From contig JAKSXM010000263.1 in assembly GCA_022575985.1 (NCBI GenBank), forward strand, positions 12,256,001 through 12,320,000: a stretch of 64,000 nt of DNA. Reading direction: 5' to 3'. The stretch is from Anagrus nilaparvatae. Taxonomy: Eukaryota > Arthropoda > Insecta > Hymenoptera > Mymaridae. Shown here piece by piece: positions 39,964 through 48,708 of the stretch. Every line of letters starts with the position of its first letter. The stretch's first letter is position 1. The notes beneath the pieces were generated by a model that ran no database searches, was not told the origin of the DNA, and was given only the letters and a program-made list of their open reading frames with translations. A program made the position numbers and the translations under genes.

Positions 39964-40550
39964 GGTTATGGGCCCAGTGCAATAAATAAATAATTAAATT
40001 TTTTTGTGATTGTGTAATTAATAAATAATTAATTAATTAATTAATAAAATCGACCGCGTGGTGAAAAAATTTTTTTTTGAAAAGTAAAGTGAAATTTTTT
40101 TTTAATAAATAAAAGTTTATGAATTGTGTAAAAATAAAAATTTAATTAATAGTGTTTAATTAATTAAATAAACAATAAAAGTTATAAACTAAAATTAATT
40201 AATATTGAAAGTGGCGTCATATTGCATCATCTTTATATACGTTAAAAACTCTAAACGGTTTTTTCAACATTATTATCATTATTATACAGACCCAAAAAGT
40301 AAAAGTAGCGGGAGAATAATACATAGAAGAAAGAAGAATAAGAAATTAGAAAGAGAAAGGTAGAAGATAGGTTCCTTGAGGCGCGCACGAGTTTCAAATT
40401 CATACACCTCAGGGCCGTATATAGTAAAAGGCGGGCCCCGCAGTACTCAACAAAATCAGTAGCGTATCAAGAAATTTTGGGGCCCCGAGGCAAAAATAAA
40501 TTTTTTTTTCTCTAATTTTCTGTAATTTAAAAAAATTTTTTTTAACAAAG
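39964..40550 (+). other. Copia leader with primer-binding site
   Basis: Starts with the tRNA-iMet-type primer site, then AT-rich leader. A GC-richer patch at 40405-40495 (GGGCCCCGCAG ... GGGGCCCCGAGGC) looks like a small foreign insert or structured leader. Translation likely starts at ATG 40551 (AAAGATGGGA). Confidence 0.7.
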
Positions 40551-43500
40551 ATGGGAAATAAGAGAAATATAACCCAATTTGCTGGAGAAAACTATCTAGT
40601 ATGGAAGAATAGAGTAAGATCAGTGTTGATAGATGAAGGGGTAATATCAATCATTGATGAAGAGATGCCAGCAAATCCAAATGCGAATTGGGTCACAAAA
40701 AACAATAAAGCAAGAGGAATCATTATGAATTATTTAGCTGATTCCCATATTAGCTATGCTTTAAATGAGGGCGCTGCTTCAAAAGACATTTTCAAAAATC
40801 TTGATGCAACATATGATAGAAGGAGTTTGCCCAATCAGTGGGCAATAGAAAGAAAAATCAATAACTTAAAACTGGATTCGAGCACAACATCCCTCCTTGT
40901 GCATTTCGAAAAATTCAACGAATTAATTACCACCTTATCTACTGCAAAAGGAGAAGAAATTAAAGAAGGTGATAAGATTGGAAAGCTCTTGCAGAGTCTT
41001 CCCAACGAGTACAATCAAGTGGTGACGTCTATTGAAACAATGAACGAAAGCCAAGAAATTACCTTCGCCTTTGGCAAAAACAGGCTCCTGGACCATGAGA
41101 CGAAGCTGAAGGAGATGAATAACGATACCAGTACCAAGGCACTTATATCTAGTGTGGCTGAAAATGTGCCTCAAAGCAGAAATCGGAACTTTCCTAATAG
41201 GCAAAGAGGAAGGCATTTTGGGAACAGAAGAAATTTTAGAAGTGCTAACTTCAGGAGAGGAAATAGATCGCTTGAATGCCACCAATGTGGTCGTAAAGGC
41301 CATAATAAAAAAGATTGTTTTTACTACAAAAAATTCTTAGAATTTAAAAGAAATGGATCACAGAATACAAGAGCAAATATGGCTCAACAGGCAGAAGCAA
41401 ACGATGTAGTGCAGATACAGACTCAACCATTTGCTTTTATGGCTGGTCAAAGTGGATTTAGTGTAAATTTAAATAGTGATCTAAATAATTTTGTTGTAGA
41501 CTCAGGTGCATCGCACCATATGATAAAAACTGATAAATATTTTGAAAATGCCAAGATTTTGAATCCACCAATATTGATTGAAGTGGCTAAACGAAATGAA
41601 TTTATAAAGGCTACCAAAATAGGAGATATTAGAGTAGTCAGTAACTTGGGATTAACCTTGTTGCTTGAGAATGTACTTTACAGTCCAGAGCTACCAGAAA
41701 ATTTGCTATCGGTAAAGAAAATGGATCAAAATGGCAGAGAAGTCACTTTTAAGGATGGTATGGTTCTCATCAAAAGAGGAGAGCAGGTATTCATGTCAGG
41801 TAAAATTATTTACGCATTACCAAAAGTAGAAATTGAATATGTCAAAAACGTAGTTGCAAATTTTGCAAAACATAATAAAATAAATTATGATTTAATGCAT
41901 AAACGTTTAGGACATATGAGTGATAATAAATTTAATGAATTGAAAAATAAAGAAATGGTCGATTATATTAAATTAATTAAAAACGTAAAACCTAATAATA
42001 AATTATGTGAATCATGCATAAAAGGAAAACAATGTAGATTAAAGTTTAATAAAAGTGAAAATAAAGACCATATAAAACGACCATTATTTATTATTCATTC
42101 AGATGTAGGTGGACCGATCACTCCTTCTGGAATTGGAAATAAAAATTATTATGTTGTTTTTATGGATGAATTTACACATTATCACGTAACTTATTTAATG
42201 TCTAAAAAGTCCGAAGTATTTACAGCTTTTAAAGACTTTGTTGAAAAAAGTCACGCAAAATTTAATTTAAACATAGCTTATTTATATATTGATAACGGAC
42301 GTGAATATTTATCAAATGAGATGAAAGCTTATTGTGTACAAAAAGGCATAACCTTGCATTTAACTGTTCCTTATACCCCTCAATTAAATGGGGTTGCTGA
42401 AAGATTAAATAGGTCTATCACAGAAAAGGCTCGTACAATTTTAATTCATGCACAATTAAGTACTGTTTTTTGGGGTGAAGCAGTCCTAACTGCTACATAT
42501 TTAATAAATTTAACACCTTGTAGAAGCCTTAAAGATCATAAAACTCCCTTTGAGTTATGACATGGTAAGAAACCAACTGTAGAATACCTTAAAGTTTTTG
42601 GGTCGACAGTTTACGCACTTGACAATAATAAAGGGGGTAAATTTGACAGTAATTCATGGACAGGGATTCTAGTTGGTTATGTGCCAAATGGCTACAAGGT
42701 GTGGCATCCAGATAGGGAAGAATTTATAAATGTAAAACATGCAATTTTTGATGAAATAACATTTTTAAATACGAGACCTAAATTAAGTTTTGAAAGTATT
42801 GATAGTGAAAATACTAGAAAAGTTGACCAATATGAAAATCTTTTAAGGTCAGCAGAAGAAATACCTGATAATGATAAATCAGATGATGTAATAAATAAAA
42901 TACCTGATAATGATAAATCAGATGATGTAATAAATAAAATACCTGATAATGATAAATCAGATGATGAAATAAATAAAGTGCCTGATAATAATAAATCAGA
43001 TGATGTAATAAATAATGTACCTGATAATAATAAATCAGATGAAATAAGAAATAAAAATAGAAATAAAAAGAGAAATAAAAATGATTGTAATGAAATTAGA
43101 AATAAGCAAATTCCCTATAAAAGGGCTAGAATAAATAATAAATCTGTATCAGAAACAGATAAAGAAGTACACAATAAGAAATCTCATAATGTTAAAAATA
43201 AAGTAATAGAAAATAAAAGTTTAAGAAGGAGTGATAGAATAAAAAATGTAGGGTCCACAGATTATAATGAAAATAATACAATACTAGACCATGTTTTGTA
43301 TAAGGCACAAATAGTTGCCAGTGATATTCCAAATTCTTTTCAGGAAATTCAATCTAGAAGTGATAAGCCGGAATGGGACGTTGCTGTCAATGATGAATTA
43401 GAAGCCCATCGCAAAAATAAAACTTGGACACTTGTACCAAGACCAATAAATAAAAATATATTAGATTCTAAGTGGGTATTAACTATAAAAACAGATGAGT

Positions 43501-44864
43501 TTGGAAATCTCGTAAGGCGTAAAGCCAGATTAGTAATTCGTGGTTTTAATCAGGAATATTTAATAGACTATAACGAAACTTTTTCTCCCGTGGCAAGAAT
43601 TGCAAGTCTTAGACTATTATTAGCTTTCGCGAATCAATTTAATTTGTTGATACATCATATGGATGTAAAAACTGCATTTTTGAACGGAATCCTGAAGGAA
43701 GACGTCTATATTAATATTCCGGAAGGACTTAAAAATGACAAAAATAAAAATTTAGTATGTAAATTAAATAAAGCGATATATGGCTTAAAACAAGCAGCAC
43801 GATGCTGGTTTGAAGTTTTTGATAAAACGTTAAAAGAAAAGGGATTTCAAAACTCATCTACTGAAACTTGTGTTTATATACTTGATAAAGGAAATATATT
43901 TAAAAATATATATGTATTTTTATATGTAGATGATATACTTATAATTACGAAAGATAATTTAGCAATGAATAGATTTAAAAATTATTTGACTCAAAAATTT
44001 AGTATGAAAGACTTAGGTGATATAAAGTTATTTTTAGGAATTAGAATAATTAGAGATGAAAATAAAATTAGTTTAGATCAAAGTTTATATATAAAGAATA
44101 TTTTAAATGAATTTAATATGATTGATTATAGTAAAACCATGACGACACCTATGGATTGTAAAGTAGATTATGTGGGCTTAAATTCAGATGAAAAACACAA
44201 TGACCTATGCCAGAGTTTACTAGGCTGTTTAATGTATCTAATGGTTTGTACTAGACCCGATATTAGTAATTCGGTAAATATTGTAAGTAGATATGCAAGC
44301 AAAAGTAATAAATTATTATGGGAGTATTTAAAAAGAATTTTAAAGTATATTAAATGCACAATAAATTTAAAATTAACTTACGAAAGAAATGAAAATTTTT
44401 CGGAATTTATAACAGTTTATGTAGACTCTGACTGGGGTGGTGATGTGATCGATAGAAAAAGTACAACCGGGTATGTATTTTTAATGTTTGATAAATGCGT
44501 CATTGATTGGCGTACTAGAAAACAAGAACTGACCGGAGGGTCATCTTGTGAAGCAGAATATATGGCTTTATACGATGCAGTTATAAATGCCACTTGGTTT
44601 ATATATGTGTCAAATGGTATAAAAATAGAATTAAAAAATGGTATTTTAATTTATGAAGGTTGTATTGATGTTGCAAATGACGAATGCCCTCACAGAAAAA
44701 GGAAGGCAATAGATATAAAGTATCATAGAGTCCAAGATGAGGTAAAACGAAACTATGTAAGATTACTACATATCCCAACTGCAAATCAAATTGCAGATAT
44801 TTTTACAAAACCTCTTTCAAATGTTAAATTCTTATATTTTAGAGAAAAACTTGGACTTATATAA
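40551..44864 (+). pseudogene. gag-pol: Copia Gag-Pol polyprotein with one nonsense codon
   Basis: Domains in order: UBN2/Gag (residues ~1-210), CCHC knuckle CHQCGRKGHNKKDC (~243), protease VVDSGASHH (~316), integrase zinc domain (HKRLGH ... CESC, ~449-485), integrase core with HSDVGGP, YIDNGREYL and GVAERLNRS (~517, 579, 616). Next come RT with FLYVDDILIIT (~1126) and RNase H with VYVDSDWGGD (~1290) and SSCEAEYMAL. All catalytic residues I can check are present. The single lesion is TGA at 42558-42560 (codon 670), where copia relatives have Trp in PFELWHG. The frame then continues unshifted. A 13-codon repeat lies in the integrase-RT linker. Confidence 0.95.
42868..43040 (+). repeat. 39-bp coding repeat in the copia linker
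   Basis: Five copies, the last partial, encode PDNDKSDDVINKI-like units. They keep frame and lie in the disordered linker between integrase and RT, so length changes would be tolerated. Confidence 0.9.
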
Positions 44865-47321: not shown

Positions 47322-47331
47322 AATAATTTAT

Positions 47332-47551
47332 TTGAAAACATGTGCGAGGCAAGTACTTACACAAAAGTTTCAAAAAAATAATTTTATATTTTTAATATTT
47401 TTTGTTTTTTTAAATAATTAAACGGTGTCTAGATAAGGTGTATTAGGAGTCTACTGACGAGCCAACCTAATACACTATGGCGAAACACTGTTACGTTCCT
47501 ATTAGTTAGAAAATTAACCAATTTATTGGTTAAATTAATAAAAATATCACA
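47332..47551 (+). repeat. Left direct repeat of the hammerhead element
   Basis: Starts TTGAAAACATGTGCGAGGCA and ends AAAATATCACA. It carries the ribozyme at 47421-47492 and a perfect 9-bp hairpin TTAACCAAT/ATTGGTTAA near its end. It differs from the right repeat at roughly 10-15 positions by eye. Confidence 0.85.
47421..47492 (+). ncRNA. Type III hammerhead ribozyme, copy 1
   Basis: All core elements are present in order. Stem III 5' strand is 47421-47428, with the GTC cleavage triplet at 47427-47429. Stem I is TAGA/TCTA (47430-47433, 47450-47453), then CTGACGA (47454-47460). Stem II is GCCA/TGGC (47461-47464, 47478-47481), then GAAA (47482-47485), then the stem III 3' strand CACTGTT (to 47492). 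Stem III has eight pairs including A15.1-U16.1 and one G-U. Loops I and II contain complementary strings (GTGTATTAGG and CCTAATACAC), which could form a long loop-loop helix. Cleavage is expected after C47429. Confidence 0.85.
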
Positions 47552-47580
47552 TTTAATTGGGTTACGTTGGTCATAAAAGA

Positions 47581-48160
47581 AGGAGCATATCACGCCTTTC
47601 AGAAGAAGATTAAATTGGATGCGTTATGACACTCGCACAGACTATTTTGCATCCTTAGTGATGTACAGACTCGTCCGCATGAAGGAGCCGCCATTCCTTT
47701 TGTCACTATTTGAGCCCTATAAATCGGACAAGCCACAACGCGGTCCTCGTAAGGATTTAAAGATCCCCTCTGACATAATAACTGACTGGGGTATAAATTC
47801 ATTCCAAATCAAATATGCCCACTTCTGGAATAACATCCCTCCCTGCATACGTGACATTCATTCATATTCACGGTTTAAGAGAAGTATAAGGCAGTATTTA
47901 TACAAGACCGATGATACTTAACACAAATCATCCAATTTTATATTATTTTATTGACGGAATATTCTGACTTATTAAGTTTAATGCTTTGTGCTATTGATAT
48001 ATTTACCAAATACTTTATTTTTTTTATAAACTATAAATTATATTTTCTATTTATTTATTTTGTATTGTATATATTATATTTTAATTGATTTACTACTTAT
48101 ATGTAAAAGAGTGTACCATATTTTGCCAGGCAAATAAAGAGAATAATAATAATAATAATA
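47581..48160 (+). mobile_element. 5'-truncated non-LTR retrotransposon inside the hammerhead element
   Basis: About 580 bp holding the C-terminal end of a non-LTR reverse transcriptase and a 3' UTR ending in (AAT)n at about 48140-48160. It is flanked by ATAAAAGA at 47573-47580 and 48161-48168, read as its own target duplication. The simple-repeat tail and 5' truncation are typical of LINE-type insertion. Confidence 0.8.
47619..47921 (+). pseudogene. C-terminal fragment of non-LTR reverse transcriptase
   Basis: The frame reads LNWMRYDTRTDYFASLVMYR just upstream and within, then KDLKIPSDIITDWGINSF, HFWNNIPPCIRDIHSYSRFK and a stop at 47919-47921. The pattern 'F/LWNxLPxxIRxxxSxxxFK' is the terminal motif of LINE polymerases (Jockey/CR1/RTE-like). 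Only the last ~100 residues are present. The catalytic RT and endonuclease are missing. Confidence 0.8.
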
Positions 48161-48479
48161 ATAAAAGATAAAATTTCTATATTTTCATGTTGATACATAA
48201 AAATACTGAGTAATGAAGTTTACCAGAAATTTTATTTATTTGATTGAAAGCTTTAACATAAGCAAATTTTGATGAAAATTTATTTTCAAGAATGAGGCTA
48301 TGACATTTTTTGATACTGATTTATCAGTTCGTGTTATTTTTAGCCTTATTAAATTTAATAAATCTCTGAATGTAAGTTTATAAAATTAATAGAATAAAAA
48401 TCAGCTGTATTTAAATTAGAAAGAGAAAACAAAACTTCTTTTTTCTAACGGTGTACACAAGCAAGCATTTTTAGTCGTT

Positions 48480-48697
48480 TTGAAAACATGTGCGAGGCAA
48501 GTACTTACACGAAAGATCCAAAAAAATAATTTTATATTTAAAAAATTTTTTTTTTTTTAATAATTAAACGGTGTCTAGATGAGGTGTGTTAGGAGTCTAC
48601 TGACGAGCCAAACTAATACACTATGACGAAACACTGTTACGTTACTATTAGTTAGAAAATTAACCAATTTATTGGTTAAATTAATAAAAATATCACA
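48480..48697 (+). repeat. Right direct repeat of the hammerhead element
   Basis: Second copy of the ~220-bp repeat, ending AAAATATCACA, followed closely by the AATAATTTAT duplication. It carries the second ribozyme. Confidence 0.85.
48567..48638 (+). ncRNA. Type III hammerhead ribozyme, copy 2
   Basis: Same layout as copy 1: GTC at 48573-48575, stem I TAGA/TCTA, CTGACGA 48600-48606, GAAA 48628-48631 and the stem III partner CACTGTT. Stem II is GCCA/TGAC, so one pair is a C-A mismatch (G to A at 48626), which probably weakens it. One base change in loop I (GTGTGTTAG) is matched only by a G-U in the loop-loop helix. Confidence 0.75.
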
Positions 48698-48708
48698 AAA
48701 TAATTTAT

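What the first reader, a model, noticed from the sequence alone, without database searches (positions are those of the whole stretch)
47332..48698. Retrozyme-like element in an animal genome: paired direct repeats each with a type III hammerhead
Two ~220-bp direct repeats, each with a hammerhead motif at the same place, enclose a body with no open frame, inside a 10-bp target duplication (AATAATTTAT). Removing the nested LINE fragment gives ~780 bp: repeat, ~340 bp, repeat. Cleavage at C47429 and C48575 would release 1146 nt as it stands, or 558 nt in the ancestral form, suitable for circularisation. Known: plant retrozymes have LTR-like repeats with type III hammerheads, Penelope-like elements carry hammerheads in flanking repeats, and described animal retrozymes are mostly short type I tandem arrays. 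Inference: this is a type III retrozyme or non-autonomous Penelope-like family with unusual architecture.
Basis: partly seen in the sequence, partly recalled or inferred. Interest (0 to 1): 0.9.

Follow-up and report, generated by a model that had tools for sequence, protein, structure and literature searches.

The report
Insect self-cutting RNA mobile element
A young, non-coding mobile element in an insect-like genome carries a self-cutting RNA of a type usually found in plants, and its copies look as if they were written into the chromosome by copying a small RNA circle, so the apparent long terminal repeats are only the overlap of one and a bit turns.

Summary
The two 220-bp repeats, the two hammerheads of type III topology, the nested LINE and the 10-bp target duplication are real. 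The family is large: 220 exact copies of a 29-nt hammerhead stretch and 595 candidate places in 489 Mb. In 66 of 73 direct copies the 3' end lies at unit 212-231, while 5' ends are scattered over 63 positions. The window's "LTRs" are therefore just the overlap of a 1.39-unit copy, not LTRs. Target duplications of 8-15 bp are in excess (17 of 79 at score 8 or more, 2.8 expected). Some copies are head-to-head inverted pairs, two with an 11-bp duplication around both arms. The anatomy fits target-primed reverse transcription of a hammerhead-made RNA circle by another element's enzyme; Penelope-like frames exist in the genome, but no link to them was found. Filed as an animal non-LTR retrozyme with a type III hammerhead. 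Cleavage, circles and the partner enzyme are inferred.

The parts
47322..47331 (.). target-site duplication, left (AATAATTTAT)
   Evidence: exact 10-bp match to 48699-48708 at the element boundary
47332..48698 (+). retrozyme-like element: a 1.39-unit partial tandem copy of the 561-bp unit, interrupted by a LINE
   Evidence: chain against a genomic stretch of units: starts at unit 561/1, ends at unit 219
   Evidence: 93.6% identical to 48480-48697
47421..47492 (+). type III hammerhead motif 1; predicted cleavage after C47429
   Evidence: Rfam Hammerhead_3, 34.2 bits, E 4e-5, below gathering; structure
47514..47533 (+). hairpin just upstream of the family's fixed 3' end (TTAACCAAT/ATTGGTTAA)
   Evidence: sequence; predicted as a hairpin in a family unit
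47552..47572 (+). start of unit body (unit 221 onward) up to the LINE insertion
   Evidence: aligned to the genomic unit up to the LINE
47581..48168 (+). nested LINE 3' fragment with (AAT)n tail and one copy of its ATAAAAGA duplication; not part of the family
48169..48479 (+). rest of unit body, up to unit position 561
   Evidence: matches the unit; 324 candidate places genome-wide for 48176-48478
48480..48698 (+). second copy of unit positions 1-219, ending at the family's fixed 3' end (ATATCACA)
   Evidence: 66 of 73 direct copies end at unit 212-231
48567..48638 (+). type III hammerhead motif 2; predicted cleavage after C48575
   Evidence: Rfam Hammerhead_3, 28.7 bits, E 1.5e-3, below gathering
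48699..48708 (.). target-site duplication, right

Best explanation
A non-autonomous, non-coding retrotransposon of the animal non-LTR retrozyme kind, but with a type III hammerhead. Transcripts of its tandem copies are cut by the hammerheads into units of about 561 nt (521 in a subfamily) and closed into circles. A reverse transcriptase supplied by another element (Penelope-like most likely, a LINE possibly) nicks AT-rich DNA and starts copying the circle at one internal site, just 3' of a hairpin, at about unit 219-226. It runs round the circle for less than one to a few turns before stopping. This gives a fixed 3' end, a variable 5' end and, past one turn, 'terminal repeats' that are mere overlap. 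Sometimes both target strands prime, giving head-to-head inverted copies. Shown from sequence: family, hammerhead motif, end pattern, excess of target duplications, inverted copies. Inferred: transcription, cleavage, circularity, partner enzyme.
For: (1) 3' end at unit 212-231 in 66 of 73 direct copies, 63 distinct 5' ends; in 17 of the first loci, with ends entered by hand' ends are 219-226 (resultant length 0.9996, against 0.354 for 5' ends). (2) Target duplications: 17 of 79 elements score 8 or more (2.8 expected from swapped flanks), 9 of 79 score 10 or more (0.36 expected). (3) Head-to-head copies: 5 of 79 (L015, L026, L048, L056, L079), plus C95 (L017/L030) and C147 (L032); L015 and L079 have exact 11-bp duplications around both arms, as twin priming predicts. 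(4) 15 of 73 direct copies exceed 561 bp. (5) Repeat copies within a locus differ by 1.5% on average, against 4.3% to other loci (15 multi-copy entries of 64, of which L017 and L030 overlap in place; Wilcoxon P 6e-4), also across inverted arms in L015, L030, L032 and L079. (6) The hammerhead segment varies less (1.6%) than the rest of the repeat (3.4-6.0%) among 33 distinct copies. (7) As a circle the unit folds far better than 40 dinucleotide shuffles: z -6.8 (A), -8.6 (B) on the sense strand. (8) Candidate places fall from 595 for the 3' part to 324 for the body, as 5' truncation predicts; a rough measure, since query lengths differ. (9) Two reading frames with RT plus GIY-YIG domains in the genome.
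Against: No RNA data: cleavage and circles are not shown. No compensatory changes. Hammerhead scores are below Rfam's gathering level. No clear pile-up of 5' ends at the cleavage site (unit 98/99): L062 alone is a candidate; L060 is a local duplication and L075 is split by another insertion. That argues against a cleaved linear template but does not prove a circle, since uncleaved multimeric transcripts would also give multimers. The antisense strand of the unit also folds well (z -6.7 and -5.7). 62 of 79 elements show no target duplication at score 8, and in the first 20 loci alone the mean excess was weak (P 0.07). Seven of 73 direct copies end outside 212-231. WIN and L026 do not show the within-locus similarity. 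No sequence shared with the 13 GIY-YIG loci.
Confidence: 0.72

Rival explanations
1. A plant-type LTR retrozyme: true LTRs with type III hammerheads, mobilised by an LTR retrotransposon integrase.
For: Type III hammerhead in both repeats; window copy looks like repeat-body-repeat; Bel/Pao and Copia elements lie in the same window.
Against: 5' ends are not fixed (63 positions in 73 copies), so there are no LTR termini; the target duplications seen are 8-15 bp, not 4; multimers beyond dimers and inverted copies exist.
Confidence: 0.04
2. A non-autonomous derivative of a Penelope-like element, with pseudo-LTR arrangement inherited from its parent.
For: Partial-tandem organisation, internal initiation, extension of both target strands and AT-rich targets are published Penelope-like features (PMC11167929 passages); two RT plus GIY-YIG frames were read in this genome.
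Against: No similarity between the unit and 13 fetched GIY-YIG loci; no hammerhead family match in the 7 of them scanned with Rfam and only a chance-level match (L036, E 2.9) in 13 with the family model; published Penelope hammerheads are minimal type I (PMC7761336 passages). Twelve of the 13 loci are about 3.2 kb, so terminal repeats may lie outside.
Confidence: 0.14
3. Reverse transcription of long uncleaved tandem transcripts, with the hammerhead a passenger or used only for end processing; no RNA circle needed.
For: No 5'-end pile-up at the cleavage site; in one Penelope-like element, cleavage was not needed for insertion in vitro (PMC11167929 passages).
Against: The hammerhead is the least variable part of the repeat; the unit folds strongly as a circle, though that is only suggestive; units within an insertion come from near-identical templates, which a homogeneous array transcript could also give.
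Confidence: 0.15
4. Ordinary satellite DNA spread by DNA-level recombination or circular DNA.
For: Tandem arrays; in the C95 array 14 of 17 units, all interior, carry a variant absent from both ends and from the second arm, which suggests later DNA-level expansion.
Against: Many dispersed copies shorter than a unit, with one fixed end and an excess of target duplications.
Confidence: 0.03

Closest known systems
Metazoan non-LTR retrozymes (Cervera and de la Pena 2020, PMC7229834)
   Same: Non-coding, AT-rich, hammerhead-bearing tandem units, duplications longer than 4 bp, no LTRs; proposed spread by reverse transcription of circular RNA
   Different: Those have type I hammerheads and mostly 150-450 bp units; here type III and 521/561 bp. 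The paper proposes the mobilisation step; here copy ends give genomic evidence on it
Plant LTR retrozymes (Cervera 2016, PMC4918200)
   Same: Type III hammerhead in direct repeats around a non-coding body; circles of 600-800 nt
   Different: Plants have LTR ends, tRNA primer site, polypurine tract and 4-bp duplications; here 5' ends vary and the duplications seen are 8-15 bp
Penelope-like elements, e.g. PAc of Anolis (PMC11167929)
   Same: Pseudo-LTRs from partial tandem copies, hammerhead, internal initiation of reverse transcription, AT-rich targets, extension from both target strands
   Different: They encode RT and GIY-YIG; their hammerheads are minimal type I; this element has no long open frame
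Type III hammerheads with loop pseudoknots in termite and toad delta-like RNAs and in dipteran genomes (PMC7936874)
   Same: Type III topology with Watson-Crick pairing between loops I and II, in insects among others
   Different: Termite genomic ones were isolated motifs without recognised mobile context; there helix I carries an extra hairpin and a short pseudoknot, here an 11-bp loop complementarity

Membership tests
Hammerhead ribozyme, type III | conserved core CUGANGA...GAAA, cleavage after UH, helix III open | tested here: met
   in the repeat-query loci 52 of 56 copies (20 of 22 loci) keep the core, and 34 of 56 (19 of 22 loci) also all pairs of helices I and II and at least 6 of 7 of III; the C95 array supplies 17 of the copies, 14 of them with a broken helix II pair
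Hammerhead ribozyme, type III | Rfam RF00008 gathering score | tested here: not met
   34.2 and 28.7 bits against 48.5; long loops may explain part of this (inference); so the claim is 'hammerhead motif', not a gathering-level Rfam member
Hammerhead ribozyme, type III | covariation of helices | tested here: inconclusive
   0 pairs changed on both sides in 13 sequences, copies too similar
Hammerhead ribozyme, type III | self-cleavage activity | not testable with these tools
   needs in vitro transcription
Metazoan non-LTR retrozyme | non-coding tandem or partial-tandem units with hammerhead, low GC, TSD (when present) longer than 4 bp | tested here: met
   GC 0.246 and 0.24; tandem chains; TSDs 8-15 bp in 17 of 79
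Metazoan non-LTR retrozyme | type I hammerhead | tested here: not met
   type III topology; so it works like one and is a variant, not a standard member
Metazoan non-LTR retrozyme | circular RNA in the transcriptome | not testable with these tools
   no RNA data
Plant LTR retrozyme | fixed LTR ends and 4-bp TSD | tested here: not met
   5' ends at 63 positions in 73 copies; window TSD 10 bp
Plant LTR retrozyme | tRNA primer binding site and polypurine tract | not tested
   not searched for explicitly
Penelope-like element | RT and GIY-YIG open frame | tested here: not met
   no frame of 120 aa or more overlaps the element
Penelope-like element | pseudo-LTR partial tandem organisation | tested here: met

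The most novel reading that the evidence does not exclude
The genome holds a readable record of target-primed reverse transcription on a ribozyme-made RNA circle: one start site at about unit 219-226, runs of under one to a few turns, and a second recurrent start near unit 312-324 used by the opposite target strand in inverted copies (outer end 312-324 in 5 of 7 inverted loci, at 72 in L015, undetermined in L032; also in the single copy L019). The 11-bp loop I-loop II complementarity could make the same motif either an active pseudoknotted hammerhead or a locked form that protects the circle.
Probability: 0.45. Interest if true: 0.78.

Novelty: new variant of a known kind. Interest (0 to 1): 0.62.

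Why it matters
How animal retrozymes get back into the genome is put forward as a proposal in PMC7229834 (Discussion). This family, with many closely similar copies and readable ends, makes the step testable: which enzyme, which start site, circle or multimer. It also extends the plant-like hammerhead type to a mobile element of an insect-like genome.

Tried and rejected
Rejected: true LTRs (ends not fixed). Rejected as evidence: 5' ends at the cleavage site. Five loci first seemed to start at unit 98-102 (L045, L060, L062, L071, L075); on reading the junctions L060 is a local duplication and L075 is split by another insertion, leaving L062 (98) and L045, L071 (102); 20 further loci (L085-L104) added none at 98-102. 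Led nowhere: RF00008 search of the whole genome found nothing, but its 14 control genomes did not ring either, so uninformative; viral contigs pattern scan, 0 hits; no hammerhead or shared sequence in the GIY-YIG loci (7 of 13 loci scanned; 13 loci, one chance-level match at E 2.9); a perfect-palindrome test of inverted junctions failed because the arms join different unit positions; a literature search by insect order showed nothing relevant among the 12 rows listed of 30,648. Host order was not settled: the best named hits are insects for the Copia protein (plants lower down) and various arthropods for the Bel/Pao protein (whose best hit, 96% identical, is unnamed).

Selection bias: loci L009-L029 are from the 40 scored hits of the repeat query (favours complete repeats); L045-L104 were chosen by an exact 29-nt core match (favours intact hammerheads and needs the core present). 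The pattern search lists 100 of its 220 places, in contig order; 60 new regions were fetched from these. L092 and L096 share flanks and are not independent. In one search, 82 loci were given (window, L009-L029, L045-L104); L017 and L027 were left out beforehand and one more fell to the script's filters (probably L075, whose pieces lie far apart), giving 79: the window, 73 direct, 5 inverted. Unit A, used as reference and folded, is a C95 array unit that carries the helix II change; a unit from L028 without it gave the same predicted fold at the hammerhead.

Full report
What is there. The window lies at G000:C373:12256001-12320000 of a 489-Mb assembly in 393 contigs. Its Copia protein has insect proteins as best named hits and its Bel/Pao protein arthropod ones; the species and order were not determined. 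The element spans 47332-48698 between AATAATTTAT duplications. Two 220-bp stretches, 93.6% identical, each carry a hammerhead motif of type III topology (Hammerhead_3, 34.2 and 28.7 bits, E 4e-5 and 1.5e-3 in a 1.7-kb scan, below the gathering score 48.5). The rest is a body without open frames of 120 aa, broken by a LINE-like 3' fragment.

The hammerhead. Helix III (7 bp) is open, helix I 5 bp, helix II 4 bp, core complete. Loops of about 14 nt can pair over 11 consecutive positions, reached by 67 of 200,000 shuffles. Nested folding gives -24.2 kcal/mol with helix III plus the loop-loop helix; the hammerhead without pseudoknot evaluates to -10.6 and the loop duplex alone to -16.1. A nested predictor cannot show helices I and II together with the loop pairing, so this does not decide between an active pseudoknotted form and a locked form. 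Pseudoknots between stems I and II are common: approximately 40% of hammerheads in PMC3088659 (passages), and they occur in termite and toad delta-like RNAs and in similar motifs of Diptera (PMC7936874, abstract and passages). Among 13 copies there is no compensatory change, but the hammerhead stretch varies less (1.6%) than its neighbours (3.4-6.0%) in 33 distinct copies.

The family. The repeat query found 595 candidate places, 40 scored, all E below 1e-90; the body query 324 candidates, 40 scored; an exact 29-nt hammerhead stretch occurs 98 + 122 times, its reversed control 0 times. Tandem copies at C95:16586555-16595197 are spaced 561 bp; a second subfamily has a 521-bp unit lacking 39 bp, 94% identical elsewhere.

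The ends. Against genomic stretches of units, 79 elements were read at both ends. Of 73 direct ones other than the window's, 66 end at unit 212-231, while 5' ends take 63 positions. The window copy starts at unit 561 and ends at 219: 1.39 units. Others start elsewhere, so the length of the 'terminal repeat' differs: for example 890 nt from unit 452 (L010), 624 nt from 151 (L016), 953 nt from 396 (L024). Fifteen of 73 exceed 561 bp and three exceed 1122 bp. Target duplications: 17 of 79 score 8 or more against 2.8 expected from swapped flanks; 9 of 79 score 10 or more against 0.36 (up to one mismatch allowed at a cost). In the first 20 loci alone the excess was weak (mean score P 0.07; 5 of 20 at 8 or more against 5% in swapped pairs).

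Inverted copies. Five of 79 and two array loci (C95 and C147) are head-to-head. L015 and L079 carry exact 11-bp duplications around both arms, so each pair is most simply one insertion. One arm usually ends at the canonical site; the other ends at unit 312-324 in L026, L079, L056, L048 and C95, at 72 in L015; L032 is undetermined and L048 lacks a canonical arm. This looks like priming from both target strands. Cleavage and extension of both strands was reported for a Penelope-like enzyme in vitro (PMC11167929, passages).

Template. Repeats within a locus differ less (1.5%) than between loci (4.3%), 15 multi-copy entries (L017 and L030 overlap), P 6e-4, with WIN and L026 as exceptions. The unit folds as a circle with z -6.8 and -8.6 on the sense strand, and -6.7 and -5.7 on the other. 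The fixed 3' end falls in an unpaired stretch after a hairpin in that fold. No spike of 5' ends at the cleavage site was found. Most copies read through it, so the template was circular or uncleaved; sequence alone does not choose. In the C95 array 14 of 17 units carry C-to-A next to the GAAA; the unit at one end, the two at the other end and the second arm lack it, so that array probably grew later at DNA level.

Partner enzyme. A GIY-YIG search gave 39 matches (150 of 1091 candidates scored); two of the frames tested hold both RVT_1 and GIY-YIG over about 600 aa (L105, L043), that is, Penelope-like elements. Neither the unit (13 loci) nor a hammerhead (Rfam, 7 loci; family model, 13 loci) links them to this family.

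Comparison. Animal non-LTR retrozymes have type I hammerheads and are proposed to be copied from circles by LINE or Penelope-like enzymes (PMC7229834, passages and Discussion section). Plant LTR retrozymes have type III hammerheads, 4-bp duplications and LTR signals (PMC4918200, passages). A review mentions insects among organisms with type III hammerheads, with work in preparation (PMC7761336, passages). In the listings I saw no described insect type III retrozyme, but most subscription papers are not held. I file it as a type III variant of the animal non-LTR retrozyme, working by a Penelope-like insertion route.

Noticed in passing
window 1442-23000: Several Bel/Pao retrotransposon pieces (DUF1759, Peptidase_A17, integrase); short matches recur at about 11.8, 19.9 and 21.1 kb in both orientations, suggesting a repeated segment.
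   Followed up: no
window 40500-44864: Copia-type element in two long adjoining open frames (gag to integrase, and RVT_2).
   Followed up: no
L075 1008-1296: A short element with CACTG-like inverted ends sits between two TA dinucleotides inside a retrozyme copy, right beside the hammerhead cleavage site; looks like a TA-target MITE.
   Followed up: no
L017 / L030 (G000 C95:16586471-16596353): Array of 17 units of which 14 interior ones share a change that breaks the closing pair of helix II, while units at both ends and the opposite arm lack it.
   Followed up: partly
L043, L105: Penelope-like frames of 608 aa (reaching the locus edge) and 601 aa with RT and GIY-YIG domains, unbroken over the stretch read.
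   Followed up: partly
L019, L026, L048, L056, L079, L017: Recurrent second end near unit 312-324, mostly on one arm of inverted copies; cause unknown.
   Followed up: partly
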